A DNA stretch of 64,000 nucleotides, from positions 1 to 64,000 of the forward strand of contig CAIYYI010000230.1 in NCBI GenBank assembly GCA_903930345.1, written 5' to 3'. The notes beneath the pieces are model-generated. The model saw nothing but the letters and a program-made list of their open reading frames with translations. It had not been told where the DNA came from and made no database searches. This document shows positions 1,606 to 18,488 of the stretch, one piece after another. This DNA is from an uncultured Verrucomicrobiota bacterium. GTDB lineage: Bacteria > Verrucomicrobiota > Verrucomicrobiia > Limisphaerales > CAIYYI01. The translations under genes were made by a program, and so were the position numbers. How positions within the stretch are numbered: the first letter of the stretch is position 1; the number at the start of each line of letters is the position of its first letter.

Positions 1606-4600
1606 TCAGTACTTGTTGGGATGGCAGTCTTTGCAGGCGGTCTTCACCGGCTTCCAGACATTATTGATGTGGCATTTCGCGCACGCCACATTCATGTGAT
1701 CCCGGCCCAGGGTGAAGCGGGTCATGGTGTCGTGGTTGAAGCGCAGATTCTCGCCCTTCCATCCCCCGTTGCTGTGGCAGCGCGCACAGTCGGGGCCCAT
1801 GGAGGGCTTGTGGGGATCATCTTTTTTGTGGCAGACGACACATTGGCTATCCGGTTTGTTAATGCGCCCCAGCACGGGGATGAGGGTGTCGTTGTGGCAG
1901 GATTTGCAGTCGGTGGTCAGGTGCTTGCCAATCAGTTGTTCCCCGTCAAAGGTGAACTGGTGGATGTGCTCAGCCCCGGGCCGTTTCTTGGGCCACAGGT
2001 CGTTGTTGTGGCAGGATAAACAGGTCGGCCCGTAGAAGTCTGGATGCTTCACTTTATGGCACGAAGCACATTCGGTCGCCAATCCCTTGAAGGTGGCCGA
2101 GGCCAGTTTTCCACTGGGTGCTTTGGCTTGGTGGCATTTGATGCACTCAACAGTCAGGTGTTTCCCCACCAGTGCGTATTTTGAATCCCGGTTATGGTCG
2201 AAGTGAAGCTCCTTCAGGGTGAACCCTGCGGGCGTGGTGTGGCACTTCGAGCATTCCCGCTTGAACTGTTCGCCATGCGGGTCCTTGTGGCAATCGGCGC
2301 AGTCTGTTTTCAGCCCCCGGAACTGGGCGGAGCCGAGTTTCTTGCTTGGGGCCACCGGGAGATGGCATTTGATGCAGTCCACCTCCAGATGCTTCGCCAC
2401 AAGTTGGTACTTGGAGTCCTTGTTATGGTCAAAGGAAAGCGACTTCCTCTTGAACCCGAACGGACTATGGCACTTTGTGCAGGCTTCGGAAAACTGCTCC
2501 CGGTGCGGGTTCTTATGGCAATCGGCACAGCCGGATTTCAAGTCGTGGAACAGGGCGGAGGCCAGTTTTTTGTCCGGGGAGGTCGGCACGTGGCATTTTT
2601 CACACGAGATTCTGGCGTGCTTGGATTCGAGCTTGAACTTTGAATCCCGGTCATGGTTGAAAATCAACGCCTTTTTTGTCCAGCCAGCGGTGGTGTGGCA
2701 CTGGGTGCAGGTGCTGACGAACTGTTTCTTGTGTGGATCCTCATGGCAACTGGTGCAGTCGCTGGACAGGCCCTTGAATAAGGCCGTGCCTAGCGCCCCG
2801 TCCGGTTTCTTGGGTTTGTGGCATTTGGCGCAGGCCACCGACTCGTGTTTGCCGGTCAGCTTGAAGGAGCTGTCTTTTTCATGGGCAAATTTCAGGTCCT
2901 TGGCGGTCCAGCCTGCCGTCGAGTGGCATTTCTCACAGGAGGCGACAAACTGGCCCTCATGCTTGTCGGCGTGGCAGGCGATGCAGGCATCGTATTTCAG
3001 CCCGATGAAATAATTCCCCGGCATGCCAGCGGTGCGTTTTTTCTTGTGGCACTCATCACAGTCAACCTTGGCGTGTTTCCCATCCAGTTTGAAGCTGGCC
3101 AGGTTGTGGTCGAACTTCTCCTTCACAAAGGGGACAATCGACTGCGAGGCGGGAAGATGCTCCTTGTGGCAGTCGATACAGGCCCCTTTGAGCGTGCCGT
3201 GGTAGCCGGCCAATTGCGTCCGGCGCTCCTTGACGACCTCGTGGCAATGTTCGCATTGCGAGTTGGCGATGGTTCCGGTGTAGGAATGGCACTTGGTGCA
3301 GGATTCGGCCGCCGGGCCGATGCGGTGTTTGGTGGACAAGTCATTCGGGCTGATGCAATCCGCAAAGCTCTTGGTGAAATTCTTTTTCACCGACGCCATC
3401 TGCCCTTGGGTGAAGAGGAACACTCCGGCGACCGCCATGATTATGGCCAGAGCCAGGACGGCCAATTCAACTTTCGAGACGAAGACCTCCTCCACGATCG
3501 ATTTGAGCGTGATGGGGGCAAGATGATCGCGATGGGTGGAGGGAAGGCTCAAGGCGTGGTGATGCTCCACGTACTCCATGGGAGACCAGCCGTGGAAAAT
3601 GCCGGCCAAGGCAATGCGCGTGCCGGGGTTGATCAACGATAGAAACAAATGTCCGCCCACGGAGCCCAAAGTGGCGGAGAACAGTGCGGTGTGGACATAC
3701 CAGGGGATCAGGATCGTGCTTTGGAAGATCATGAGCAGTCCGGTGGCTCCAAAGCCGAGGAAATACAGCATGACCAGGCAGGCGTTGATCTTCTGGCCGG
3801 TGTTGAAGCGGCCCACTGCGGCTAAAATGGCTTTTCTGTTATAGAGGCTGCGGAGCGATTGCACCATCCATACCAGGTCGGCACTCCCCCAGCTCAGCAT
3901 TACCCGGATGTGTGCCCAATGGACTTTGGGGTGCAACAGCACCACCACCGGAAGGGATGCCAGCCAGCCTATGGCAATGACCTTGTGGGTCAGTACGGTC
4001 AATGAAAACCATTGTCGGTCAAAATGCAGGAAGCGAAATGCCACCATGATCAGCCCGGATAACATCAGCAGGACAAACGGCACCGCATTCACCCAGTGGA
4101 GAATCAGCTCGGGTTTGACAAACCGGCGGAACTTCTGGAAGCAGAGGCCATACTGATCGGTCTCCGGTTGGTGGGAGAGAATCTGATCGCCGCCGCGCTG
4201 GTGCAATTCCTTGAGCACCCCCGTCACTTCGGTGAGCAGTGCCTTCGCGGGAGACTGTTCCTGCCAGGCGAGGTCAGGCAGGAAGAGGCACAATTGATCC
4301 CGCAGGTCGATGGGGCGAATCCCCACGGGTTCGTAAATATCCTCGGCGGTCAGCCGGTGGATGCACAGGGCGGGGATGATGCGTGCGCAAAGTGTCTGGT
4401 GCGCCGGATTCGTAAATGCGCCCGCCGACTTTTTTTCCAGCTTTTTGCCATGCGCGGTCACCGCTTCGATTTCCGGCTCCAGGCGCAGATCAGGATGATC
4501 GCGCAGGATGTTCCAGAGGCTGTCGAAGGCGATCAGGCCTGGGCCATCTGTTCCGCTTGGCTGGCCCAGGCGCTGGCTCACCAGCTTGGAGAGGGTGGGC

Positions 4601-5583
4601 AGGATGGCCAGTCGCCCCGCGATGGGGATCTTTGCGAAAACCTCGACCAAATCCGGATGCACCGGGAACAGCGCGACAAAATCGTCCAGCCGATCGCCCA
4701 TGGTTCCATAGCAATGAACGAACTGTGCCAGGTGGGCTTTGACTTGGGCCTTTTGGGCGGGTGTTTTCCGGACTAAACATTCAGCCACGGCGCAGCCCAC
4801 GTCGTCTGGCGTGATGGGCACCAGCTCAAAATGCGCTTTGACACCCTGAAGCACCTCGGCGGCAAACTTGAATTGCGGGCTGCTGAACAAATCCTCCCGG
4901 AGTCCCGCCATAAAGCGGAACTTCGTGCTCTGGCAGAGTTCCCCGATCTCGCCGAGAAAATGCAGGTCCAGATACAGATCCCGCTTTCGCCGGCTTCGCA
5001 GGTAATCAACCAGCTCATCCATCACAACCAGCAGACCCTGTTCCGGAAACGACTGGTGGAAGCTCGACAGCATGTCGCCGAACGCAACTTTGTCCACGTG
5101 CGACTTGGATCCGGGCGGGAAATGGTAGCTGATCCCCCAGGCCGACAAGCCGGCTTCGATCTGGGCGAGGAGAATGTCCCGGAGCGGCTGGGGCCTGGCT
5201 TTGATGTCGAGGCGGACAACCTTGAAGCGGCCGGCAATCGCGTCTGCTCCGACGGATCCGTTCTCTTTGGACCCTGGATCCGGTTTGAGCACCTTCTGGA
5301 GGGAGGGTGTCCCCGCAAAATCAGCGTGCTCACCCAGGCTGGAGATGGCCGAGAGAAAATGGCTTTTGCCGGTGCCGCGCCTGCCAACCACCAGCAAGGC
5401 CCGGGCTGACGCCGGATCGTCACAGCGCAGCCGGGGGAAAACCTGCCCCATCAACCGCGCGGCCATTCCTTCGGAAATGGCGTAGCTGGAGACCAGCCGC
5501 CGGGCAGTCTCCTTCTGATCGGCGTCCTGAAGCCGGACGCTGCCCTCAATCGGTTCAAACTGGATGAGTTCGCCGTAGTTCAT
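1606..5583 (-). CDS. Fusion protein: PglY/DUF6079-like P-loop ATPase N-terminus, membrane cytochrome b domain, 23-CxxCH multiheme cytochrome c
   Basis: Single 1325-aa ORF; Walker A GRRGTGKS (aa 67-74), Walker B LLVVMDE (aa 184-190), hydrophobic His-containing region aa ~485-685, TM helix ~705-727, 23 CxxCH motifs from aa 762. Confidence 0.85.
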   Translation of the reverse strand: MNYGELIQFEPIEGSVRLQDADQKETARRLVSSYAISEGMAARLMGQVFPRLRCDDPASARALLVVGRRGTGKSHFLSAISSLGEHADFAGTPSLQKVLKPDPGSKENGSVGADAIAGRFKVVRLDIKARPQPLRDILLAQIEAGLSAWGISYHFPPGSKSHVDKVAFGDMLSSFHQSFPEQGLLVVMDELVDYLRSRRKRDLYLDLHFLGEIGELCQSTKFRFMAGLREDLFSSPQFKFAAEVLQGVKAHFELVPITPDDVGCAVAECLVRKTPAQKAQVKAHLAQFVHCYGTMGDRLDDFVALFPVHPDLVEVFAKIPIAGRLAILPTLSKLVSQRLGQPSGTDGPGLIAFDSLWNILRDHPDLRLEPEIEAVTAHGKKLEKKSAGAFTNPAHQTLCARIIPALCIHRLTAEDIYEPVGIRPIDLRDQLCLFLPDLAWQEQSPAKALLTEVTGVLKELHQRGGDQILSHQPETDQYGLCFQKFRRFVKPELILHWVNAVPFVLLMLSGLIMVAFRFLHFDRQWFSLTVLTHKVIAIGWLASLPVVVLLHPKVHWAHIRVMLSWGSADLVWMVQSLRSLYNRKAILAAVGRFNTGQKINACLVMLYFLGFGATGLLMIFQSTILIPWYVHTALFSATLGSVGGHLFLSLINPGTRIALAGIFHGWSPMEYVEHHHALSLPSTHRDHLAPITLKSIVEEVFVSKVELAVLALAIIMAVAGVFLFTQGQMASVKKNFTKSFADCISPNDLSTKHRIGPAAESCTKCHSYTGTIANSQCEHCHEVVKERRTQLAGYHGTLKGACIDCHKEHLPASQSIVPFVKEKFDHNLASFKLDGKHAKVDCDECHKKKRTAGMPGNYFIGLKYDACIACHADKHEGQFVASCEKCHSTAGWTAKDLKFAHEKDSSFKLTGKHESVACAKCHKPKKPDGALGTALFKGLSSDCTSCHEDPHKKQFVSTCTQCHTTAGWTKKALIFNHDRDSKFKLESKHARISCEKCHVPTSPDKKLASALFHDLKSGCADCHKNPHREQFSEACTKCHSPFGFKRKSLSFDHNKDSKYQLVAKHLEVDCIKCHLPVAPSKKLGSAQFRGLKTDCADCHKDPHGEQFKRECSKCHTTPAGFTLKELHFDHNRDSKYALVGKHLTVECIKCHQAKAPSGKLASATFKGLATECASCHKVKHPDFYGPTCLSCHNNDLWPKKRPGAEHIHQFTFDGEQLIGKHLTTDCKSCHNDTLIPVLGRINKPDSQCVVCHKKDDPHKPSMGPDCARCHSNGGWKGENLRFNHDTMTRFTLGRDHMNVACAKCHINNVWKPVKTACKDCHPNKY

Positions 5584-5593
5584 GGTTGCGCGC

Positions 5594-7333
5594 CTAATAC
5601 GACAGCGGATTGTGGTCCTTGCCGTGGCAATTCAGGTAGCAGGTGCCGCGGTACATCCCGTTATCGATGAATTCCAGCCGCCCGCCCGATGATTTGGTCA
5701 CATAGGTGGTGTTGAAGTTGATGAGGTGGCCGGCCCGGTTGGACCCGTGTGAATCATGGCAGGTGGTGCAGGCGGTTTTCACCCCTACAATGTGCTTGTT
5801 GTGGGTCCGGCAACTCTGGTCGGCCAGGATGCTGGATCGGCTGTGGCATTTGTAACACAGGGCATAGGCACCGGCATTTTCGGTCTGGTTATCCGTCATC
5901 TCCAGGCGGCGCTCCAGCAGGGGGACAAAGGTGGAGCCGTGCGGGCCGTTCGGTCCGACCCCGCCCGCGGCCGGACCGGTGTTGCTGTTGTGGCAATCGG
6001 TGCAGTACATCAGACTGCTGGTTTTCCAGGGGTCAATCAGGCTGGGAACATTGGGATTCTTGCCGGCGGTCTCCACCGGGTGGAAGGACATGCCCGAGGG
6101 GCTGAATTCCAAACGCGTGTTGGTCTGCACAAACTGACGTTCCACCCGGGCGGGGCCGCGGGAGGCGCTGTCGGCATGGCAGCGGAAACAAAGCTCGTAC
6201 TCGTTGACCACTGGGCTGATCACGGCGCCGGAGGCGGAAATGCCCTTCACCCCCGCAAGGGATCCCGACGCCGTCGGGGCCGAGGCGGTCTGCTCGTTGG
6301 CGGCGTGGGGATTGTGGCAGTCCGCACACCCCACATGCCGCGTAGGGTTCAGGGCGTCCTCCGTCGGATCATGGGTGCCCGAGGAGAAGTTGACCGGGTG
6401 GACGGATACCTTGTTGAACTCGTTTTGGATGTTTTTTGAGGCGACGTTTCCGTTGTGGCAGACGTAGCAGTTGGCCTCATCGCCGGAAAAGTTCAGCAGC
6501 CGCTGCCGGGTTCCGGCGGCGTGCGGTCGGTGGCAGTTCTCGCACCCGTTGCCCATCACAGAACTCTCGGCGGTGTGCGGCCAGGGATCGGGCAGCGTGC
6601 CGTTCCAGATTTTGGCCGAGGTTTTGTGCACGCTGGCATTCCAATAGTCCGGGTTGTGGCAGGCAAGGCACAGCGCGGATCCGTAATTGTTTTGCACGAG
6701 GAATTTGCCGAAACGGTTTTCGTGGGCCGTGTGGCAGGAGGTGCACTGCATCTGCTTGTCATGGTCAAGCTGGACCGGTCCCACCAGCGTGGCTGGATCC
6801 CGCAGTTGTCCCTTGGCCATCACCAGAGCGCTGTCATACCGGAAGGAGATGGGGTGGTCATCCGAAAGGTCAGTGCCCAGGCGTGCCGCCCCGACCGGCA
6901 GGGTTTGCAATGCCCCGGCCTTGCTCCCTCCCCGGCTCTGCTTGCGCACCATCCCGGCCGCCACCGTGCCGTCGTGGCAGCTCAGGCACAGCTTCGATGA
7001 GCCGGTTGGCTGGCCGGTTGTCCCCTTTTGCGTGGTGCTGGTGTACGGGACATAAACCGCTCCGGATTGAATGTGGTTCCACATGGGCGCCTGGCTTTTG
7101 ACCCCATGGGGGGTGTGGCAGAAAATGCAGATCTCACTTTCGCCGGCTATCTTGACTGTTCCCGGGCTGGTGGCGGAAAGATTGTGCCGCGTGTGTTGGA
7201 TGCTCTGCGCACCCGGCGGGGGACCCGCCTTGAGGGCGATGGGCGCGAGCAGCAGACCCAGGCTGATCACCCACCGCTGCCACTCTGGCGCGACGGTCTG
7301 GAACATGGAAATCAATCGGGAGGTGACGTTCAT
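5594..7333 (-). CDS. Multiheme cytochrome c (11 CxxCH plus one CX3CH)
   Basis: 579 aa with signal peptide; CIFCH, CLSCH, CTSCH, CLACH, CENCH, CYVCH, CADCH, CFRCH, CTDCH, CYKCH, CTTCH, CYLNCH. Confidence 0.93.
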   Translation of the reverse strand: MNVTSRLISMFQTVAPEWQRWVISLGLLLAPIALKAGPPPGAQSIQHTRHNLSATSPGTVKIAGESEICIFCHTPHGVKSQAPMWNHIQSGAVYVPYTSTTQKGTTGQPTGSSKLCLSCHDGTVAAGMVRKQSRGGSKAGALQTLPVGAARLGTDLSDDHPISFRYDSALVMAKGQLRDPATLVGPVQLDHDKQMQCTSCHTAHENRFGKFLVQNNYGSALCLACHNPDYWNASVHKTSAKIWNGTLPDPWPHTAESSVMGNGCENCHRPHAAGTRQRLLNFSGDEANCYVCHNGNVASKNIQNEFNKVSVHPVNFSSGTHDPTEDALNPTRHVGCADCHNPHAANEQTASAPTASGSLAGVKGISASGAVISPVVNEYELCFRCHADSASRGPARVERQFVQTNTRLEFSPSGMSFHPVETAGKNPNVPSLIDPWKTSSLMYCTDCHNSNTGPAAGGVGPNGPHGSTFVPLLERRLEMTDNQTENAGAYALCYKCHSRSSILADQSCRTHNKHIVGVKTACTTCHDSHGSNRAGHLINFNTTYVTKSSGGRLEFIDNGMYRGTCYLNCHGKDHNPLSY

Positions 7334-8415
7334 GGCTGGCGCAGATATTTAAAAACTTGGATGCGGCTGTTATAGGAGTCAGCCACATAAACCAGGTTGT
7401 CCCGGCTGATGGCGATGCCGCCGGGGAGCCAAAACTCCCCCGGCCCGGTGCCGTTGCTCCCCACCGGCAGGAGGAAGCGGCCCTGCTGGTCGAAAATCTG
7501 GAGGTTGTCGAACAGGGCATCAATCACATACAGGTTGCCATCCCCATCCACGGCCACCCCTTTGGGGCGGCTCAGGTGGCCCGAGCTGTCGCCCGCGCTG
7601 CCGATGGAGCTGACATGCCGGTGTTCCGGGTCAAATATCTGAACGCGGAAGTTCATCGAATCGGTGACAAAAAGCTTCCCCAGATGATCAGCGGCCAAGT
7701 GGGTGGGATAGTTGAATTCACCGGGCCCGGTGCCCCGGGTGCCAAAGGAGGCCCGGAAGGTGCCCGTTAGGTCAAATTCCAGAATGGAGTGTGCGGCGGC
7801 ATCGCTCACGTAGAGTCGGTCCCGGATGATCGCGAGCCCGGTCGGCCGCTCCAAGGGGTGGTTTAAAGCAAACAGGAATTTCCCCTTCACATCCATCGCC
7901 AGAACCATTTTCAAGCCGGAGTCAGCCACAAACAGTGTGGTTCCCTGCTTGGCCACAGCCACGGGTGTGATCAGGGCTGTTTTCCCGACCTTGGTCCACC
8001 GGTGCCAGGAATTGCGTTCCCGATCATAAAAATACACGGCGGCATTGGCCGTGTCGGTCAGGCAAAGGTTGTCCTTTTCATCCAGGGATAACCCGACCGG
8101 TCGCACCAGATTCTGGCTTTTATCCCCCCCGGTCAGCCAATCCAGGAGTCGTATGGCACCGCTGCGTCTTGCCCCCACGTCAGCAGGCCCATGGATGCTC
8201 TGAACGTAGGCAATGCGTGGTGTGGCGGGTGGCTCCGGCCAGACCCGGTGGACTTCGGCCACGTTTGCGGCACGTTGCTGGGTGGCACACCCACCCCCCA
8301 AGGCGGCCAGCAGGAGGGACAGCAGCGCCTGTAGCCGAACGGGGTGTCGCTGGCAGTCCCTCACCTGAGCTTCAGCCGGGCCAAACAACGGAGGACGATG
8401 GAAAAGGGGCTGCAT
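7330..8415 (-). CDS. NHL-repeat beta-propeller, probable lipoprotein
   Basis: 361 aa; lipobox-like LAALGGGC; repeats such as RPTGLAIIRDRLYVSDAAAHSILEFD and RPKGVAVDGDGNLYVIDALFDNLQIFD; 4-bp overlap with the downstream cytochrome gene. Confidence 0.85.
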   Translation of the reverse strand: MQPLFHRPPLFGPAEAQVRDCQRHPVRLQALLSLLLAALGGGCATQQRAANVAEVHRVWPEPPATPRIAYVQSIHGPADVGARRSGAIRLLDWLTGGDKSQNLVRPVGLSLDEKDNLCLTDTANAAVYFYDRERNSWHRWTKVGKTALITPVAVAKQGTTLFVADSGLKMVLAMDVKGKFLFALNHPLERPTGLAIIRDRLYVSDAAAHSILEFDLTGTFRASFGTRGTGPGEFNYPTHLAADHLGKLFVTDSMNFRVQIFDPEHRHVSSIGSAGDSSGHLSRPKGVAVDGDGNLYVIDALFDNLQIFDQQGRFLLPVGSNGTGPGEFWLPGGIAISRDNLVYVADSYNSRIQVFKYLRQP

Positions 8416-8416
8416 T

Positions 8417-10444
8417 TCAGAAGGAGCGTTTGGCTTTCAAAGTAAAGAAGTGCCGCTGGCGCAATTCCCCCAGATAATCCTGGTCCTGCAGGTCGTAGCT
8501 CAGCTTCACGGATAGCTTGTTGCGCACATATTCCACCCCCGTGCGGAAAATCGCCAGGTTTTGATCAAATCCCTGGCCACGTTCCATCCGCCATCCGCCC
8601 TCCACGCTCCAGGCCAGGGAGGTGGTGAGGTGCTTGTTGTAGCGTGCAATGTGATTATACGCGGTTCGATGCCGCCCATCATCCTTGAAAGCGGTCCAGC
8701 TCTGGTCCAGATCAAAGCTCAAGGTGGAGCCTTCGTTGACCCCAAAACTGAAGGACTGGAAACAACGCTTGGAGGTGAAAGGCCCGAGGTTGGAATCAAA
8801 TATCTCATACTCGGTTCCCGCCCGAAGCCAGCGCCACGACACGTCAGCTCCGGCGACCTTGTCTGTGATATTCTGCGTCAGCAGGGAGAGGGCGCCCCGG
8901 TTGTCCATCAGATTGAGCCGGGCATAGACGCCCATCAGGTAGTTGAAGAAATCCAGCCGGATCTGGAATTGCTGGGCCATGGTCCGGAAGTCGTCCGAGG
9001 GGGCCAGGTAGGCCTGGTAGTCCACCAGCACCGCACCTCCATTCGGAATGGTCGTCAGGCCCGGTGCCCGGCGGATCTCCGTCAACTCACCCTGCACAAC
9101 CACAATATAATCCAGTAGGGGGGTATAGCTCTTGCCGGCATTGTCGGTTACCCGGATGGTGGCGGCAACCACGCGCGGTTCCTTCAGATAGGTGACCACG
9201 CCGTCGGTCAGGTTGTGTGCTTCCCCTATGATCATGAGGGTTTGTCCGCTCGTCTCACGCTGCTCCAAATCGTAGCGTCCGCTGTAGCCCAGGTTCAAAT
9301 CGCTCCAGGAAACCACTCGCCGGGTAAAAGTGCTGCCCCAGCCCAGACCATAGCGCTTGCCTGACAAAGAGGTGCCGGGGCTGGTGTTTTCGAATGTCTG
9401 GCCATGCACATCCGCCGTGGTGTTGAGTCGTTCGCGCCATTGGTGGTGCAAGGAGGCCTGGGCATTGTGTCCCTGGCTGTCCGATACTCCGGCGCTGCGG
9501 TTGTCGTAGCTATAGTTATAATCGCTGTTCAGCGTTTTGGTGTGTTCAATGGTGCCACGCTCCGTCAGCATGAGGTTTCGCGTTGGCACGGTGGAGTCAT
9601 CCATCCGGTTGTAAAACAGGCTGGAATTCAGATGCACCCGGTCATTCCTACCCCAGACCTCGCGGTCGGAAAGGTTGACCGTGTGGTAGGTGCCCTGCTG
9701 CAGCGCCATGTCCGACTCCTGCCGGTTGTAGCTGTCGAGCATGTAGGATAGGCTGGTGCTGGCGTTGTTCTGGCGTTCATTCTGCATGTCAAAGGCCAGA
9801 GTGCTTTCCCGTAGTGTGCTGGGGCGGGTGAAACCGGTGATGTCTTCCTCCAGGCGGGTGTAGTTCACGTGAAAGGGTAGGACCCCCTCCGTGTAGCCGA
9901 TCTGCCCGCCGTAACGCCGGTTGTCCACCGTCACGCGGTTGAAAAAGTCAAACTGGCGGAAGTTATGGTCCTTTTCCGCAAATATTCTGGTTGCATACGG
10001 CTTTTCCTGAAGCAGTTGCAAGGATGTCTGGTATCGTTCCAGAAATCTGATTTTGGACTCCGTGCCAGAAAGGGTCAGGCCTACCGGCTGATTTATGCTT
10101 TGCTGCTGCCAGCTCAGGCCATCCTCCAGCCTGACGTTGAACAGGGCCAGGTTGGGATGGTAGATGGAACCCTGCATGCCCAGATTCAGCATGGGGGCCA
10201 CGTACAAATAGCTGCGCTCCATGGTGCCCGGGCTGTCTTTGCGGCTGCGTATCTCTTTTTCCCCCTCCACTTCCAGTCCCAAACTGGTCTCCGTGAATTG
10301 CATCCGCATCCACTGGAACTGATCCTCTTCCTCAGGCGGTTGCGCTGGGGCAATCACCACCGCATTGACCAGGAATGCCAGACACAAGCTGAACCACCTT
10401 CGCCGCCACGCATTGGTTGCTGGCCTTTTCATTCTGAAGGTCAT
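8417..10444 (-). CDS. Predicted outer-membrane beta-barrel (porin-like) protein
   Basis: 675 aa; N-terminal signal; alternating beta-strand pattern (e.g. LNTTADVHGQTFENTSPGTSLSGKRYGLGWGSTF) and terminal aromatic ...HFFTLKAKRSF. Confidence 0.72.
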   Translation of the reverse strand: MTFRMKRPATNAWRRRWFSLCLAFLVNAVVIAPAQPPEEEDQFQWMRMQFTETSLGLEVEGEKEIRSRKDSPGTMERSYLYVAPMLNLGMQGSIYHPNLALFNVRLEDGLSWQQQSINQPVGLTLSGTESKIRFLERYQTSLQLLQEKPYATRIFAEKDHNFRQFDFFNRVTVDNRRYGGQIGYTEGVLPFHVNYTRLEEDITGFTRPSTLRESTLAFDMQNERQNNASTSLSYMLDSYNRQESDMALQQGTYHTVNLSDREVWGRNDRVHLNSSLFYNRMDDSTVPTRNLMLTERGTIEHTKTLNSDYNYSYDNRSAGVSDSQGHNAQASLHHQWRERLNTTADVHGQTFENTSPGTSLSGKRYGLGWGSTFTRRVVSWSDLNLGYSGRYDLEQRETSGQTLMIIGEAHNLTDGVVTYLKEPRVVAATIRVTDNAGKSYTPLLDYIVVVQGELTEIRRAPGLTTIPNGGAVLVDYQAYLAPSDDFRTMAQQFQIRLDFFNYLMGVYARLNLMDNRGALSLLTQNITDKVAGADVSWRWLRAGTEYEIFDSNLGPFTSKRCFQSFSFGVNEGSTLSFDLDQSWTAFKDDGRHRTAYNHIARYNKHLTTSLAWSVEGGWRMERGQGFDQNLAIFRTGVEYVRNKLSVKLSYDLQDQDYLGELRQRHFFTLKAKRSF

Positions 10445-11610
10445 TGGCTCTGCCCGAAACCATAGACGCTGACTTTCCTGCTCCCGTACTGGTTGACGGC
10501 CAGAACCAGATACTCCAGCTTGAAGTTGGGGGCGGCATATTTCTGGAAGTAAGCCAGATGATCGTAATCGATGATGACCTGGGTGGGCAGATCAAGCGGG
10601 ACTGCACTCCCGCCGCTTTCGCCGAAGAACATCAGGACCTGCCCCTCCGGATTGAAAATCTGGATCACCTGGGCGGCGGCGTCCACCACGTAGAGTCGTC
10701 CTTCACGGTCCACCGCCACGCCCTTGGGCCGCGCAAATTCCCCGGGCCGATCCCCTGAGCGTCCATAGGCGCGCAGGAATTTTCCCTCCGCGTTGTATTT
10801 TTTGACGAAAAAACCACCCATGTCAGACACGTACAACTGGTTCTGGGAGTCCAGAGCCAGGTTGGCGGGGGCGAATAATTTGGCCGATGCATCCTGTCGG
10901 TCGCGTGGGATCTGAAACAGTGGTTGACGGTTGGTCTTGGTGTACACCTGAACGCAGTTGTTGTTCAGATCCGTCACATAGAGGCGATCGCTCGAAATCG
11001 CCACATCCGTGGGCCAGATGGGCTTGAGTGTTCCTGGCGTTGCCGCAGCATTCGTTTGCCATTTGGCATCCCCTGCCGATTTCTCCCCGATGGCACCCAA
11101 CAACGTTTCGTCAGTCGCGAAAATGAGGATTTGATTGTGGCCGCGGTCCGCCACATAACGGGTGCCGTCCTGATCCAGGCGGATGTTGATCGGCGTGTGC
11201 AGGAACTTGTCGATCGTCGAATCAAGGTAGTAGAGTTTCCTTAGCCCCAGATCCAAAATGGAAATGCCGCGGCGGCCGGTGTCGCTGACGAAGATTTTTC
11301 CGTCCCACAAGGCCAGTCCATAAGGCTTGAACAGTGACCGTTTGGGCGCTTCCTTTCCCACCAGGAACCGCGCAAATTTGTTCGGGGCCGCGCCCAAGTC
11401 CCCGTCATCGGAAAAGCTGGTCAAATACTGCAGGCGTGGTTCTGCGGGTGCCGGGGGGTAGAATATGGGCGCGGCGACCGGAGTTTTCTTTTTTGCGCCC
11501 GGTTTGGCTTCGGCTGCTGGCAAAGCCTTGGGTTGGATCAGACCAAATGACAAGACCGCGACCACAAGCCATCCGGTCAGCCGCTGGCTGATTTTGGGTG
11601 TTCTCATCAA
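10441..11610 (-). CDS. NHL-repeat beta-propeller protein
   Basis: 389 aa with signal peptide; repeats FARPKGVAVDREGRLYVVDAAAQVIQIFN and APANLALDSQNQLYVSDMGGFFVKKYN; 4-bp overlap with the porin-like gene. Confidence 0.85.
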   Translation of the reverse strand: MMRTPKISQRLTGWLVVAVLSFGLIQPKALPAAEAKPGAKKKTPVAAPIFYPPAPAEPRLQYLTSFSDDGDLGAAPNKFARFLVGKEAPKRSLFKPYGLALWDGKIFVSDTGRRGISILDLGLRKLYYLDSTIDKFLHTPINIRLDQDGTRYVADRGHNQILIFATDETLLGAIGEKSAGDAKWQTNAAATPGTLKPIWPTDVAISSDRLYVTDLNNNCVQVYTKTNRQPLFQIPRDRQDASAKLFAPANLALDSQNQLYVSDMGGFFVKKYNAEGKFLRAYGRSGDRPGEFARPKGVAVDREGRLYVVDAAAQVIQIFNPEGQVLMFFGESGGSAVPLDLPTQVIIDYDHLAYFQKYAAPNFKLEYLVLAVNQYGSRKVSVYGFGQSQ

Positions 11611-11823: not shown

Positions 11824-12459
11824 TTACTTGATGTGGCATTTCAGGCACAGCGCGCTGCCAGTGTTTGCCATGCGTAGAAAGGGAGGGAATTCATTGTTGT
11901 GGACCTGGTGGCAGGAAGCACATTCTACTTTGCCCGCAAACAGCGGAACCTTGCCTAGAGCATCCACCTTGCTGGCCGAGGTTGGTGAGACCAAGGCTCC
12001 ATCGTCGCCAGCCAGTTTGGCATCGTAGAGAAAGGAGATGGGGTGGTCATTGGATAAATCGGTTCCCACCACGTTGGTGCCGGTCATGGGCGGTTGGGTT
12101 CCACTTTTTCCGCCAAACGAATCCATGGCGACCGTGCCATCATGGCAGCTCAGGCAGAGTTTGGAGGAACTGCTCGGAGAGCCAACGACTGCGTTTAGCG
12201 TCGGGCTGACCGTGGCATCATATACCTTGAATGCGACCGTCGATGTCACTTTGTGGTTCCACAAAGGAGCATCCTTGACGGTGGTATCAGAATTGTGCGG
12301 CGTGTGGCAGAAGATGCAGAGTTCATCGGTGCCCCAGCCTTTGACCGAGAGATCGTGCTTGGTGCCAGATATGCCTGCCGCCGCCTGCAGGGCGGTGGGG
12401 GTTGCTGCCAGCAGCGCCAAGGCTGCGGTTAACATCAATAATTGCTTTACGTTTTTCAT
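11824..12459 (-). CDS. Tetraheme cytochrome c, signal peptide
   Basis: 211 aa; CIFCH, CLSCH, CASCH, CLKCH; similar to the first four-heme module of the 579-aa cytochrome. Confidence 0.93.
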   Translation of the reverse strand: MKNVKQLLMLTAALALLAATPTALQAAAGISGTKHDLSVKGWGTDELCIFCHTPHNSDTTVKDAPLWNHKVTSTVAFKVYDATVSPTLNAVVGSPSSSSKLCLSCHDGTVAMDSFGGKSGTQPPMTGTNVVGTDLSNDHPISFLYDAKLAGDDGALVSPTSASKVDALGKVPLFAGKVECASCHQVHNNEFPPFLRMANTGSALCLKCHIK

Positions 12460-13215: not shown

Positions 13216-15687
13216 ATGTTGAGGCAGATTTCATTCCATCGTCTCGTTAGCCGACCGTCTTTCCCGTCCCTGTTCTTGTTTCTGACCCTGGTCATGGTCA
13301 GCCTGGTGGTTGCCAGTGACCCTCCTCACGACGAGGATTGTGTAGCGTGTCACCTGACCCACAACTCCCTCGGGGGAGGTTTGGGGAGCGTGGCGGGCAA
13401 TGCCAATTTGTGCATCAGTTGCCACAATTCGAAGGGAACGGCTTCCGCCAAGTCCTTTGCGGACAGCCAACAGGCCTTGTCCTGGCCAGGTCTTCCGGTG
13501 GGAACCAACGCCATGGGGACATCTCACCGCTGGGATGTGGGCATGGTCGGTCGCATTCAATTTTTGGGAGGTGCGGCGATACGTTCCACCGGAACCATCA
13601 AGCCAGCCGGTTCATACACTGGGGTTTATCCAAAAACCTACACCCTCACGATTGCCACCGCCGGGAATGTGAATGGGGCCCGTTTCAATTGGTCGGCCAC
13701 CACCCCCGGGGGGGGGAGTGGAGCTCTGGTTCTGGCCCGAGCCAACGTGACCTTGAACGAGGGGATCTTCGTTTCCTTTAGTAACAGCGTTGATGCTGTT
13801 AACGCGTTTCAGGTGGGCGACACATGGAACATCTACGTGCGATCTGATCTTCGCAATCCGACCAATTCGGCCATGTTGACCCGGTTGGATAATGGCCGGG
13901 TCACTTGTTCCACCTGCCACGATGCGCACAGTCAGGCCGATGCGCCCTTCGACCCCAAAGCCCCGGCCTATGCCGGGGTGGGCACGGGGACCGGACGGCA
14001 TTTCATGCGCATCAGCAACAACGTGGAACAAATGTGCGTGGATTGCCATGCCGTGCGGAATGTGACCAATTCCGTTGCCGGTTCGCATCCGGTGGGCATG
14101 GTGTACGCCACCAACGCCTTCTACAAATTCACCACCAATCTGCCGTTGGAAAAAGTGACCGGCAAAATCAGGTGTCTCACCTGCCACAAGATCCATTTTG
14201 CCCCCTCCAACGATGGTGATCTGCTGGTGATGACCAATGCCACCGCCATGTGTGCCGAATGCCACACCCTGGCCGACCGAACCTCTCCGGCAGTCCACCT
14301 CAGTGCCACGAATGGAATGACCCTTTGGCCCGGTGGCCAATATGGTGGCACTTTCCCACAGCGCACCAACGCGAGCGATCGGGGCAGTTGCATGAATTGC
14401 CATGATCCCCACGGGTGGCCGGATACGGCGAATCCCACCACCCATTACCCCAAGCTGCTCGTGGATCAGGAGGAAAACCTCTGCTATGCCTGCCACGATG
14501 CCAATGGACCGGCCCTGAAGAATGTGAAGGATGATTTTGCCAAAGCCAGGCGGCATCCGATCGGGGATTCCGATTCCCTTCGCCGGGCCGGGCGCTCGGT
14601 TGAATGCAGTGATTGCCATAACACCCATCGGGCCATGGTTGGATCGCATGTTTATACCAATACCGCCACCGCCACCCGGAACCTCATTAGCAACCCGCTC
14701 AAAGGGGTGTCGGGTGTGTCGGTGAATTACACCGGTTTGGGGAATTTTGTGGCCCCCACAACGAATCTGTACACGGCTATCCCCAAATCGGTGGGGGCCA
14801 CCTACGAGTACCAGATTTGCTTCAAGTGCCATACCGCCTATTCATTCGGGAGCACACCCCCTCCGGGACTTTCCCCTGTTTACAGCACCGGGACGGCCTC
14901 GTTCACCACCGGATCAACCAACGTCGTCGGTGCCTCCACAACTTGGAGGGCATCCATGGTGGGAATGTGGATCGTGCTGACGAGTGATCCAACCAATGCC
15001 TATCGCATAACGGTGGTGACCAGCACCACCAGCATGACGGTGACCCCGGCCTTTGCGGGTGCCTCGGTTGCCGGCCAGGCTTACACCATCGTGGGCGGAA
15101 CCGACGTGGCCCAGGAGTTCAGCCCCATGAACCGGTCGGGGCACCCGATCATGACCGGCCTGGACAACTATCCCAATTCCACTGCTGTTTCAGGCAAAAA
15201 AGGGCTTTTGGCTGCGGCCTTGAAGGTGCCGTGGAACAGCAGTATTGGTCAGCAGACGATGATGTGTTCTGATTGCCACAACACCGATGGGGCCTCCCCG
15301 GCAGCGCAGGGACCGCATGGGTCAGCCGCGCAGTATATGCTGCGGGGGGCCAACGCTGCCAATTGGCCCAATATCACCCTGGCGAATTTTAACACCAGTT
15401 GGTGCGCCAACTGCCACAACAACGCCGCTGGTTCTACCCACACCCGGGGCGACCACACCGGCCGGCAATGTTACCAATGTCACATCGTGATTCCGCACGG
15501 CGGCAAGCTTTCCCGGCTCATGGCGGATCATGACACGATGCCTGGTCGATATGCCTATAACGGCACCACGAACAATCAGTACATGCAAAGTTTCACCAAA
15601 GCGACGACTGGCGGGTATGGGGAAAGCAATTGCAAGGCGCAATGTGCCAGCGAACACAGAAATCGAACGCCATCCGAAAACTGGTGA
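13216..15687 (+). CDS. Multiheme cytochrome c (13 CxxCH) with inserted beta-rich modules
   Basis: 823 aa; signal peptide; 13 CxxCH from CVACH to CYQCH. Confidence 0.93.
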   Translation: MLRQISFHRLVSRPSFPSLFLFLTLVMVSLVVASDPPHDEDCVACHLTHNSLGGGLGSVAGNANLCISCHNSKGTASAKSFADSQQALSWPGLPVGTNAMGTSHRWDVGMVGRIQFLGGAAIRSTGTIKPAGSYTGVYPKTYTLTIATAGNVNGARFNWSATTPGGGSGALVLARANVTLNEGIFVSFSNSVDAVNAFQVGDTWNIYVRSDLRNPTNSAMLTRLDNGRVTCSTCHDAHSQADAPFDPKAPAYAGVGTGTGRHFMRISNNVEQMCVDCHAVRNVTNSVAGSHPVGMVYATNAFYKFTTNLPLEKVTGKIRCLTCHKIHFAPSNDGDLLVMTNATAMCAECHTLADRTSPAVHLSATNGMTLWPGGQYGGTFPQRTNASDRGSCMNCHDPHGWPDTANPTTHYPKLLVDQEENLCYACHDANGPALKNVKDDFAKARRHPIGDSDSLRRAGRSVECSDCHNTHRAMVGSHVYTNTATATRNLISNPLKGVSGVSVNYTGLGNFVAPTTNLYTAIPKSVGATYEYQICFKCHTAYSFGSTPPPGLSPVYSTGTASFTTGSTNVVGASTTWRASMVGMWIVLTSDPTNAYRITVVTSTTSMTVTPAFAGASVAGQAYTIVGGTDVAQEFSPMNRSGHPIMTGLDNYPNSTAVSGKKGLLAAALKVPWNSSIGQQTMMCSDCHNTDGASPAAQGPHGSAAQYMLRGANAANWPNITLANFNTSWCANCHNNAAGSTHTRGDHTGRQCYQCHIVIPHGGKLSRLMADHDTMPGRYAYNGTTNNQYMQSFTKATTGGYGESNCKAQCASEHRNRTPSENW

Positions 15688-15729: not shown

Positions 15730-17664
15730 ATGATCGGCACTGCAAAGCGATTCCTGCGTTCGCCCCGCGTCATTGTGGCCGAGTTGGCCGGTCTGGCGCT
15801 GTTGTGCGCGCTGGGTGCCAGTCTGCCGCAGTCCGGTACGGCTACCCCGGCCGAACTCGCCCGTCTGCATGAAAGTGGCCCGTTCGTGGTGGCGCTGGTT
15901 GAAACCTTCGCGCTGGACCACATTTTTCGCAGCCCCCTTTTCATGGCGCTGACGTTGCTGTCCGCCGTCTCACTTCTCGTCATCGTCATCGGCCAGGTGA
16001 AACGGCTTCGATCACAGTGGTTTCAGCGGCTTGGCCCCGCCCAGTTTCAGTCGGCTCCGTTCCGGGTGCAGTTTGAACGGCCAGCCAGGTTGCCCTTGGG
16101 CCAGGCGACCACCAAGGTGTGGTCGAAAAACCGCCTCGGTTTGGCTGGCTCAGCCATCTTCCATACCGGGCTGCTGCTTGTCATGCTGGCCGGGGTTTTG
16201 CGCGCTCTGTTTGGGGCGGATGCGGTCGTTGATCTGTTTGAAGGGGAGACGCTGCCTCCGACGGCCCGGGCGTGGGCGGCCCAATGGCCAGGCCTTCTGG
16301 CCAGGCCCGTCCAATTTGAGGAATCGTTGACGCTCAACCGGGTCCACGTTTCCCGCTATCCCTCCGGGGATCTGAAGGAGTTGACGGTCAACCTTGAGGC
16401 GCGCCGTCCGGAAGGCGTTGAAAAGGTCGATCTGGCGGTGAATCATGATGCTCACCTTGCGGGCCAGCGTCTTTTTCTCGGCCGCGAGTTCGGCCCAACG
16501 GTTTTTGTTGAGTGGCAGAACCACGGCGGGTCCTCTGCCCGGCAGGCCGTGCTGCTCGCGCCAGGGAACGAGGGCGTCTTTGAGGGTTGCTCCATCGGCC
16601 CGGGCAATTTGCGGGCTTACTTGCGGACCGTGGGCCGGTCGGCCGGCGACCACCCCACCACGGTGGAGGTGCGCGTGATGAAGGACAATGCCCTCCTGTT
16701 TTCCGGGGATACGCGGGTTCAGGAATCCGTCAGCCTGTTCGGCGGGGACCGGCTGGTGTTGCATGGGGCTGCCTTCTGGGCCCGCCTGCGCGGCAGTCGT
16801 GATGGCGCGCTTTGGCTGGCTTACACCGGTTTTGCCCTGGTTCTGGCGGGCATCACCCTCATTTTTTGTGTGGTCAGGGTGGATGGCTGCCTGGTTGTCA
16901 CCCCGGCGGGAGACTGGGAATCGGTTTTTCTTGCCGTGCGACCGCAGCGTTTTTCTGCAGCTTACGGTGATTATTTTCGCAGTCTCGTGCGCCAACAGGG
17001 GGGGGATCCCGGAACGGAGCTGCCACCAGGTGCCGCTCCGGCGCGTTCCCCTGATGCGGCCAAGGTTCCCACACCGATGGATGGTCCGCCGCAGCGCTCC
17101 CCGGTGGAATTAAGCGGGGCAACGCCCCGCCTGGCTGCCTGGATTTTGCTCGGGGTTTGTCTGGCTGCCCTGCCGGGATGTCAGCGGTCTTCCATGAAGG
17201 AGGCCCGGCAGCTGGTGGAGCGCTATAATCAGGTGGTGTCTGAAGCCTATCGGCGCGGGGATGTCCGGCTGATTGATCCGGTCGTTGGCCCCAATGAGGG
17301 ACGGAAGCTGACCGGGTTGATCGGGGTTCGCACCGATCTGGGTATCACCTTGGATTCCCGGCTGCTCTCCCTCCTGGTCACCCATGTGGATGTGGTGGCG
17401 GACGAGATGCGGGTGCACACGAAGGAGCGGTGGCATTACCGTGATCTCAGGATCGGCACGGGCCAGCAGGTGGGGGAGGAATCACTCGATGCCTATGAGA
17501 TGCTCTACATTTTCAAACGCATCGACAAGGCGTGGCTGGTGGACGAGATTAAGTTTGCCTCGCCGCCGCAGGTGGGCCGCAAGAAAACCCCCTGGGTTGC
17601 GGATCGCCAGGACGCGCACGCTTTGGGTGGCCCGTCCCAGGGCGGGGAGGGGAGACAGCCATGA
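15730..17664 (+). CDS. ResB-like cytochrome c biogenesis protein with C-terminal lipoprotein-like extension
   Basis: N-terminal ResB-type pattern (LFSLxxLCALGASLPQ-like region, multiple TM helices), followed by AAWILLGVCLAALPGCQRSS and a soluble domain; next to a ccsA-like gene. Confidence 0.75.
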   Translation: MIGTAKRFLRSPRVIVAELAGLALLCALGASLPQSGTATPAELARLHESGPFVVALVETFALDHIFRSPLFMALTLLSAVSLLVIVIGQVKRLRSQWFQRLGPAQFQSAPFRVQFERPARLPLGQATTKVWSKNRLGLAGSAIFHTGLLLVMLAGVLRALFGADAVVDLFEGETLPPTARAWAAQWPGLLARPVQFEESLTLNRVHVSRYPSGDLKELTVNLEARRPEGVEKVDLAVNHDAHLAGQRLFLGREFGPTVFVEWQNHGGSSARQAVLLAPGNEGVFEGCSIGPGNLRAYLRTVGRSAGDHPTTVEVRVMKDNALLFSGDTRVQESVSLFGGDRLVLHGAAFWARLRGSRDGALWLAYTGFALVLAGITLIFCVVRVDGCLVVTPAGDWESVFLAVRPQRFSAAYGDYFRSLVRQQGGDPGTELPPGAAPARSPDAAKVPTPMDGPPQRSPVELSGATPRLAAWILLGVCLAALPGCQRSSMKEARQLVERYNQVVSEAYRRGDVRLIDPVVGPNEGRKLTGLIGVRTDLGITLDSRLLSLLVTHVDVVADEMRVHTKERWHYRDLRIGTGQQVGEESLDAYEMLYIFKRIDKAWLVDEIKFASPPQVGRKKTPWVADRQDAHALGGPSQGGEGRQP

Positions 17665-18488
17665 CCCCATTTACCCGGGAGGTTATCCTCCACTGGAGCG
17701 CCGTGGCTTTGTACATCGCCGGCACCATTGGTTTTGCCTACGCTCTGATCTTTGCCCGGCCCGAAAAGGTGAGGGGGGCTCTGTGCGTGACGGCGGCCGG
17801 CCTGGTGCCGCACACGCTGGCGCTCGTCCTCCGCTATGTTCGGGTTGGCCATGGCCCTTACATGCTCAAGTACGAGGTGCTTTCTTCCAATGCCTGGATC
17901 GCCATCGCCATGCTGCTGCTGTTTGTCTGGCGGCGGCCCGCCTGGGCATCGGTGGCGCTCATCGCGTTGCCGGCCTCCATCCTGATGATGGGGTTGGGAT
18001 TGTTCACCAACCCTGAGGCCCGCAGTCTCCCCCCCTCGTTGCGCTCGCTCTGGCTGGTGTTCCATGTGCTCTTCAACAAGCTTGCAGTGGGCGCATTCGT
18101 GCTCGCGCTCGCCTCGGCGGTGGTGCTGCTCCGGAAGCTCCGGGGTGCCACCGGTCGGTGGTTGGATCGTTTGCCCGGGTCCGAGGTGGTCGAGGTCTAT
18201 ATGGTCCGTTTCATTGGTTTCGGCTTTGTTTTTTGGACCACTACCATCGGGGCCGGGGCCATCTGGGCCAACCAATCGTGGGGCCGTTATTGGGGCTGGG
18301 ATCCCATTGAAACCTGGTCCCTCGTCACCTGGCTGGCCTACGCCATTTTGCTGCACGCCCGCCTGTTTTTCCGGCTGGGTGGCCGTGCGACGGCCTGGGG
18401 CACCGTGGCCTGCTTTGTTCTGTCCATCCTGACGGTGCTGATTTTCCCCTTTGTATTTCCGTCCATGCATTCCGCCTATTTCCAATGA
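17661..18488 (+). CDS. ccsA: CcsA/ResC-like cytochrome c assembly protein
   Basis: 275 aa polytopic; WWD-type motif WANQSWGRYWGWDPIETWSLVTWLAYAILLHARL; ATGA overlap with the upstream ORF. Confidence 0.9.
   Translation: MTPFTREVILHWSAVALYIAGTIGFAYALIFARPEKVRGALCVTAAGLVPHTLALVLRYVRVGHGPYMLKYEVLSSNAWIAIAMLLLFVWRRPAWASVALIALPASILMMGLGLFTNPEARSLPPSLRSLWLVFHVLFNKLAVGAFVLALASAVVLLRKLRGATGRWLDRLPGSEVVEVYMVRFIGFGFVFWTTTIGAGAIWANQSWGRYWGWDPIETWSLVTWLAYAILLHARLFFRLGGRATAWGTVACFVLSILTVLIFPFVFPSMHSAYFQ

What the first reader, a model, noticed from the sequence alone, without database searches (positions are those of the whole stretch)
1606..5583. BREX PglY/DUF6079-like ATPase fused in frame to a cytochrome b and a 23-heme cytochrome c
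Sequence shows one uninterrupted 1325-aa ORF. Aa 1-~482 (about 4140-5583) carry Walker A GRRGTGKS and Walker B LLVVMDE. The flanking text (MNYGELIQFEPIEGSVRLQDAD..., VVMDELVDYLRSR, FPVHPDLVEVF, HRLTAEDIYEPVGIRPIDLRDQLCLF, ETDQYGLCF) matches my recollection of the N-terminal part of DUF6079/PglY proteins from BREX-like phage defence. Where such proteins would continue, this ORF switches to FRRFVKPELILHWVNAVPFVLLMLSGLIM..., a cytochrome b561/formate-dehydrogenase-gamma-like membrane region, then a TM anchor and 23 CxxCH motifs. The layout is topologically plausible: cytosolic ATPase, membrane b-type hemes, periplasmic c-type hemes. Inference: an ATP-dependent or ATP-sensing module coupled directly to quinone/periplasm electron flow, or a defence-derived ATPase recruited to respiration. 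I know of no described protein of this architecture.
Basis: partly seen in the sequence, partly recalled or inferred. Interest (0 to 1): 0.92.

Follow-up and report, generated by a model that had tools for sequence, protein, structure and literature searches.

The report
BREX-ATPase head on respiratory cytochrome
A family of uncultured Verrucomicrobia carries one long protein that joins the front part of a phage-defence ATPase to a membrane cytochrome with 20-23 extra hemes used, most likely, to send electrons out of the cell; the join is real and shared by 12 genomes, but the ATPase part is losing, or has lost, its catalytic machinery.

Summary
Observation confirmed. Window 1606-5583(-) is one 1325-aa ORF: aa 1-483 match DUF6079/BrxC (Pfam 4e-142; top fold matches are solved BrxC structures), aa 484-~690 an FDH-gamma-like diheme cytochrome b, aa 707-725 a TM anchor, then 23 CxxCH. 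It is not a misassembly: the same fusion, at the same junction, occurs in 13 genes of 12 Verrucomicrobiota genomes across at least two classes, and every relative of this cytochrome b that I found is fused. The gene lies in a porin-multiheme-cytochrome operon; all 10 fusion genomes of the order carry the barrel. The ATPase donor is BREX-3-type BrxC, cut after its first winged helix. Hydrolysis is not what is conserved: the P-loop Lys is kept in all 9 genes that retain the core, but only 1 of 9 keeps the Walker-B Glu plus both mapped arginine fingers (the window has Glu, lacks the fingers), and one clade of 4 genomes has deleted the whole ATPase core, keeping the extreme N-terminus, lid and winged helix. 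Best reading: a CbcL-like quinol-to-periplasm entry protein for extracellular electron transfer with a repurposed cytosolic cap.

The parts
1606..5583 (-). Fusion gene, 1325 aa: BrxC-type AAA+/wHTH head + diheme cytochrome b + TM anchor + 23-heme cytochrome c
   Evidence: orthologues
4135..5583 (-). aa 1-483: DUF6079/BrxC N-terminal module (AAA+ core aa ~12-262, lid ~263-392, wHTH ~393-483)
   Evidence: Pfam/PADLOC; AF2 model aa 1-483 mostly pLDDT 60-90; Foldseek top hits BrxC 9zll/9zdx, E 3e-8
5362..5385 (-). Walker A GRRGTGKS (aa 67-74); Lys73 kept in all 9 core-bearing fusions
5014..5034 (-). Walker B LLVVMDE (aa 184-190); Asp189 invariant, Glu190 is E/D/Q/G in orthologues
4831..4845 (-). 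Positions (aa 247, 251) that map to BrxC arginine fingers K326/R330; here G and H
   Evidence: alignment to 9zll with residues named in PMC13326643; columns
4135..4797 (-). aa 263-483: lid + wHTH, the only large part of the head kept in the deletion clade
   Evidence: model of the deleted form pTM 0.78
3514..4134 (-). aa 484-690: FDH-gamma/b561-like diheme cytochrome b; H496, H533, H631, H645 invariant
   Evidence: ligand assignment by analogy with FdnI is from general knowledge
3409..3465 (-). aa 707-725: fifth TM segment, anchor into the periplasm
   Evidence: hydropathy
1621..3300 (-). aa 762-1321: 23 CxxCH heme motifs (orthologues have 20 or 23)
5594..7333 (-). 11-heme doubled-CxxCH cytochrome, conserved operon gene; stop 10 bp before the fusion's ATG
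7330..8415 (-). NHL beta-propeller protein, conserved operon gene
8417..10444 (-). Putative outer-membrane beta-barrel (675 aa, no family match, C-terminal Phe); conserved operon gene
10441..11610 (-). Second NHL propeller protein, conserved operon gene
11824..12459 (-). 4-heme doubled-CxxCH cytochrome, conserved operon gene

Best explanation
The gene encodes an inner-membrane electron-entry protein for a verrucomicrobial porin-cytochrome (extracellular electron transfer) system. Quinol is oxidised at the diheme cytochrome b; electrons pass to the tethered 20-23-heme periplasmic arm and on to the operon's periplasmic and outer-membrane cytochromes and barrel (inferred; the direction could be reversed). 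The cytosolic head is the AAA+ plus first wHTH module of a BREX-3-type BrxC, captured once by gene fusion. Its conserved role is most likely structural or regulatory, as a cytosolic cap that mediates self-association or partner binding, helped in most members by ATP binding but not by conserved ATP hydrolysis. Shown: architecture, conserved fusion, operon, retained P-loop, scattered loss of hydrolysis residues, core deletion. Inferred: electron route, quinol oxidation, cap function.
For: Same junction in 13 genes. Tree: the 13 fusion heads lie on one side of a 98/98 branch from 11 BREX BrxC heads; deletion clade 100/100. Conserved porin-cytochrome operon, same order in G474; 10 of 10 fusion genomes of the order carry the barrel against 51 of 321 overall. 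c-type cytochrome maturation genes ResB/CcsA nearby. Lys73 and Asp189 kept in 9/9, full E+R+R set in 1/9 against 7/7 canonical heads readable at all three positions. Core absent in 4 genomes, not found elsewhere in them. The head is still constrained: 2nd codon positions differ less than 3rd (0.38 against 0.62), and 19 canonical-invariant lid/wHTH residues are kept in all 13. The isolated BrxC 1-551 head dimerises with ATP, more so with E269Q (PMC13326643).
Against: No biochemical data. The head evolves faster than the cytochrome parts (mean identity 38-40% against 55-57%). Both mapped arginine fingers are lost in the window protein, which argues against BrxC-style ATP-bridged dimers. The finger mapping rests on a profile alignment to a distant type-1 BrxC. 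Cytochrome b was modelled at low confidence.
Confidence: 0.55

Rival explanations
1. Relic passenger: the head came in by an accidental fusion (perhaps bringing a start site) and is decaying; it has no function beyond not harming the cytochrome.
For: Faster evolution of the head, scattered loss of catalytic residues, wholesale core deletion in one clade.
Against: The frame is intact in all 13 genes at deep divergence; codon-position pattern shows constraint; the deletion clade precisely keeps the N-terminal ~10 residues and lid-wHTH, with 32 of 75 canonical-invariant columns kept in all four.
Confidence: 0.17
2. Membrane-tethered wHTH: the head binds DNA or nucleoid proteins, making the cytochrome a redox-responsive one-component regulator or a nucleoid-linked respiratory complex.
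For: The head ends in a wHTH (PMC12839542 for BrxC), and the lid-wHTH is what survives in the deletion clade.
Against: The wHTH is net acidic or neutral in nearly all fusions and in canonical BrxC; no HTH-regulator match; 20-23 hemes are far more than a sensor needs.
Confidence: 0.12
3. ATP-hydrolysing module coupled to electron flow.
For: The window and G657 keep Walker A and the Walker-B Glu; G657 keeps both fingers as well.
Against: Glu190 is D, Q or G in 7 of 9; fingers lost in most, including the window; 4 genomes lack the core.
Confidence: 0.08
4. Defence role: a BREX-like sensor that shuts or drains respiration upon phage infection.
For: BrxC origin of the head.
Against: No BREX partner among the operon neighbours examined; PglZ absent by HMM from most fusion genomes; the BrxC C-terminal half is missing; G658 carries a separate full BrxC.
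Confidence: 0.04
5. Assembly chimera or frameshift artefact.
For: The window is from a 709-contig MAG.
Against: Same junction in 13 genes of 12 genomes.
Confidence: 0.01

Closest known systems
BREX BrxC/PglY (DUF6079), type-3 branch
   Same: aa 1-483 align end to end with the N-terminal AAA+ and first wHTH (Pfam 1-472 of 1238); ~41% identity; nearest plasmid relatives sit beside brxF in BREX-3 loci.
   Different: The alpha+beta domain, second wHTH and coiled-coil/dimerisation tail are replaced by cytochrome; no BREX genes beside it; hydrolysis residues not conserved.
Geobacter CbcL (inner-membrane diheme b + nonaheme c cytochrome, PMC9129911)
   Same: Works like it: diheme b membrane domain linked to a periplasmic multiheme arm, feeding extracellular electron transfer.
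   Different: 20-23 rather than nine c-hemes, 5 rather than six TM helices, and a cytosolic BrxC-type head of which the CbcL paper passages that I read say nothing; no direct sequence comparison with CbcL was run.
Verrucomicrobial porin-multiheme cytochrome clusters (PMC5615132)
   Same: Same phylum; beta-barrel clustered with multiheme cytochromes, proposed for electron transfer to humics/Fe(III).
   Different: The inner-membrane step was left undefined there ('ET in IM'); whether its porin is homologous to this barrel was not tested here.
Formate dehydrogenase gamma / b561-type diheme cytochrome b
   Same: TIGR01583 match over aa 484-677 and the His spacing.
   Different: Below the equivalog cut-off (39.6 against 115.85 bits); no dehydrogenase subunits were seen among the neighbours examined.

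Membership tests
BrxC/PglY (BREX) | N-terminal ORC/Cdc6-type AAA+ with Walker A and B | tested here: met
BrxC/PglY (BREX) | First wHTH after the AAA+ helical bundle | tested here: met
   AF2 model ends in helices plus a beta-hairpin 469-480; domain order as in PMC12839542
BrxC/PglY (BREX) | Conserved trans arginine fingers | tested here: not met
   G247/H251 in the window against R/R in canonical heads
BrxC/PglY (BREX) | alpha+beta domain, second wHTH, coiled-coil/C-terminal dimerisation tail | tested here: not met
   Pfam match stops at 472/1238; cytochrome follows; no stray C-terminal half in the genome
BrxC/PglY (BREX) | Locus with PglX, PglZ, BrxF or similar | tested here: not met
   Neighbours are cytochromes, NHL proteins and a barrel; PglZ hits in G000 lie on other contigs
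CbcL-like inner-membrane quinol:cytochrome entry protein | Diheme membrane cytochrome b | tested here: met
   b561/FDH-gamma profiles, four invariant His with FdnI-like spacing; heme binding itself not tested
CbcL-like inner-membrane quinol:cytochrome entry protein | Covalently linked periplasmic multiheme c domain | tested here: met
   TM5 then 23 CxxCH
CbcL-like inner-membrane quinol:cytochrome entry protein | Quinol oxidation and reduction of periplasmic cytochromes | not testable with these tools
   needs biochemistry
CbcL-like inner-membrane quinol:cytochrome entry protein | Sequence homology to CbcL itself | not tested
   No CbcL sequence was compared; resemblance is architectural only
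Formate dehydrogenase gamma (TIGR01583) | Equivalog score cut-off | tested here: not met
   39.6 against 115.85 bits
Porin-cytochrome operon | Outer-membrane barrel clustered with multiheme cytochromes | tested here: inconclusive
   Clustering and co-occurrence shown; barrel nature inferred from C-terminal Phe and size only, no profile match

The most novel reading that the evidence does not exclude
Core-bearing members are nucleotide-gated electron-entry proteins: ATP binding without turnover by a captured BREX AAA+ head sets the oligomeric or active state of a cytochrome b-c conduit, so cell energy charge directly gates extracellular electron transfer; natural E-to-D/Q/G changes hold it in the ATP-bound state.
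Probability: 0.25. Interest if true: 0.9.

Novelty: new variant of a known kind. Interest (0 to 1): 0.74.

Why it matters
It shows a phage-defence ATPase module moved into respiration and kept there across at least two classes of Verrucomicrobiota, with a natural series from near-intact ATPase to complete core deletion that tells which part matters. It also gives a concrete candidate for the inner-membrane step of verrucomicrobial porin-cytochrome systems, which the 2017 description left open (PMC5615132), and a specific hypothesis that ATP gates electron export. I found no description of such a fusion in the papers searched: 'cytochrome' does not occur in the main text of the 2026 domain survey of BREX (PMC12839542).

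Tried and rejected
Misassembly/frameshift: rejected by orthologues. Remainder of the BrxC gene elsewhere in the genome: not found. Separate ATPase-core gene in the deletion-clade genomes: not found. First genome-contig scan with the single fusion sequence found nothing; the scan with the cytochrome alignment worked. Single-sequence and cytochrome-b-profile searches of the PDB gave nothing; the head profile hit BrxC. The lid-wHTH model of the deleted form has no significant PDB match. Distant hits L038-L047 match only the heme part and have no cytochrome b or ATPase head in the reading frames inspected. dS is near saturation for all pairs, so dN/dS values are only indicative.
Full report
Observation. 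Window 1606-5583 on the minus strand is one open frame of 1325 codons. Aa 1-483 match DUF6079 from profile position 1 to 472 of 1238 (E 3.9e-142) and PADLOC BrxC-PglY (1.6e-151). From aa 484 an FDH-gamma/b561-like cytochrome b follows (E 5e-10 to TIGR01583, below its equivalog cut-off; Pfam Ni_hydr_CYTB 28.9 bits in the whole protein, 30.9 for the C-terminal part alone, cut-off 30.1), a fifth hydrophobic segment at 707-725, and 23 CxxCH motifs at 762-1321. The 23-heme count is right; orthologues have 20 or 23.

Is it real? The window belongs to a 709-contig MAG, so a chimera had to be excluded. A phylum-wide search found the same fusion in G203, a genome of another class (51% identity over aa 1-994; 52% over the alignment). 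A scan of 85,462 species genomes with the cytochrome part as query returned eight loci from Verrucomicrobia (one of them the G203 contig); seven show the DUF6079-derived segment in the same frame upstream, and the eighth (L035) starts inside it at a contig end, with its missing front found on another contig of that genome. An order-wide search with the cytochrome b profile found 10 of 321 genomes, all fused. In G203's class it is 1 of 347. In total 13 genes in 12 genomes share the junction: canonical QYYLDLKKTDDY becomes QYYLHFKKFKRFIKPEL-LHWVNA. No unfused relative of this cytochrome b was met. One fusion event is the simplest reading; the tree of heads puts 11 BREX BrxC heads and 13 fusion heads on opposite sides of one branch with 98/98 support, but it is unrooted and G461 is a long branch.

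Where the head comes from. The nearest non-fused relatives are BrxC proteins in 8 Verrucomicrobiota genomes, full-length or cut by a contig end or the stretch fetched (one, G228, has an interrupted frame), and plasmid copies annotated beside brxF in BREX-3 loci. The AlphaFold2 model of aa 1-760 gives a well-formed AAA+ plus winged helix over aa 1-483, and its best PDB matches are the 2026 BrxC structures 9zll and 9zdx, followed by ORC/Cdc6. The fusion cuts BrxC exactly after its first winged helix, the domain order described in PMC12839542 and the 1-551 construct of PMC13326643.

Is it an ATPase? Using the residues named in PMC13326643 (K78, E269, fingers K326 and R330 of Acinetobacter BrxC) and the alignment of 9zll to the head profile, I compared catalytic positions (the columns labelled Rf1/Rf2 are one position late, and the printed alignment in that call was used). 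Canonical heads keep K, D-E and R/R wherever these are readable. Among the 9 fusions that keep the core, Lys73 and Asp189 are kept in 9/9. Glu190 is E in the window and G657, D in G203, L031, L032 and G658, Q in G490, G in G474 and G461. The finger positions 247/251 are G/H in the window; L/R, R/L, R/H, K/Y, R/Q, G/R in G203, L031, L032, G490, G474, G658; and R/R in G657 and G461. So only G657 has the whole set. In four genomes of one genus-level group (G621, G622, G631, G635) the core from about aa 12 to 250 is deleted in frame; the first ~11 residues and the lid-wHTH remain fused to the cytochrome, and no separate copy of the core is found in those genomes. The finger mapping is the weaker part (distant type-1 template, domain E 0.0014); the Glu190 and deletion results do not depend on it.

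Is the head under constraint? Yes, more weakly than the cytochromes. Mean identity among core-bearing fusions is 38% (core), 40% (lid-wHTH), 57% (cytochrome b), 55% (cytochrome c). Codon positions 1/2/3 differ in 0.44/0.38/0.62 of comparisons in the lid-wHTH. Nineteen residues invariant in canonical BrxC lid-wHTH are kept in all 13 genes. The deleted form's lid-wHTH is modelled with pTM 0.78 but has no significant PDB match by itself. The wHTH carries no net positive charge in nearly all members, a weak argument against DNA binding.

Setting. Upstream in the operon, reading toward the fusion, lie a 4-heme cytochrome, an NHL protein, a 675-aa protein with C-terminal Phe and no family match (taken as an outer-membrane barrel), a second NHL protein and an 11-heme cytochrome whose stop lies 10 bp before the fusion's ATG. 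The same six genes in the same order occur in G474; partial or rearranged sets in G203, L031, L032, G461, G622, G635, G657. All 10 fusion genomes of the order have the barrel, against 51 of 321 overall; by my arithmetic the chance of this without regard to relatedness is about 5e-9, which overstates independence. The core operon also occurs without the fusion in G639, G034, G476, G517 and G637, though some of these contigs end nearby, so the fusion looks like an optional inner-membrane partner. A further multiheme cytochrome (13216-15687) and ResB/CcsA maturation genes lie next door.

Mechanism. Best supported: a CbcL-like entry protein. CbcL joins a diheme b membrane domain to nine c-hemes and is needed for low-potential acceptors in Geobacter (PMC9129911). 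With five TM segments and c-hemes that must be periplasmic, the head is cytosolic. The verrucomicrobial porin-cytochrome clusters described in 2017 left the inner-membrane step undefined (PMC5615132); this protein is a good candidate for such a step, though homology of the two barrels was not tested. The head's role is inferred: BrxC 1-551 dimerises with ATP and the BrxC ATPase domain binds BrxB:PglZ (PMC13326643), so a self-association or partner-binding cap is the most economical reuse; hydrolysis is not conserved, and nucleotide binding is dispensable in one clade. A decaying passenger cannot be excluded.

Limits. Genomes are MAGs without names for G handles; metagenome collections could not be scanned; dS is near saturation; cytochrome b was poorly modelled (pLDDT about 40); heme content, quinone reactivity and direction of electron flow are untested.

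Noticed in passing
window 13216-15687 (+), 15730-17664 (+), 17661-18488 (+): Large doubled-CxxCH multiheme cytochrome followed by ResB-like and CcsA-like cytochrome c maturation genes; G203 also has ResB- and CcsA-like ORFs upstream of its fusion operon (by eye, L028:66-2131).
   Followed up: partly
window 24885-31181 (+): 2098-aa ORF with no Pfam match; signal-peptide-like start, probably a large exported protein.
   Followed up: no
G000 contigs C307:330-848, C470:8-544 and C172:2368-2586: The window's genome has two strong PglZ matches and a weak DUF6079 fragment on other contigs, suggesting a separate BREX-like system.
   Followed up: no
G658 C83:20037-23750 and C161:18700-20127: One genome holds both a full-length canonical BrxC and the cytochrome fusion as separate genes; a weaker PglZ match is on C83.
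   Followed up: no
L031 and L032 (CAIMFY010000082.1, CAIMFY010000117.1): One Opitutae MAG carries two diverged copies of the fusion, each beside operon genes.
   Followed up: partly
L038-L042: Exported 20-30-heme cytochromes in Alteromonadaceae, Bacteroidetes, Chlorobiota and Halobacteriovoraceae MAGs resemble the heme arm (29-34% identity) without cytochrome b or head.
   Followed up: partly
window 1606-5583 and orthologues: Heme number is 20 or 23, differing by one three-heme repeat (window aa ~982-1043 absent from 20-heme members).
   Followed up: no
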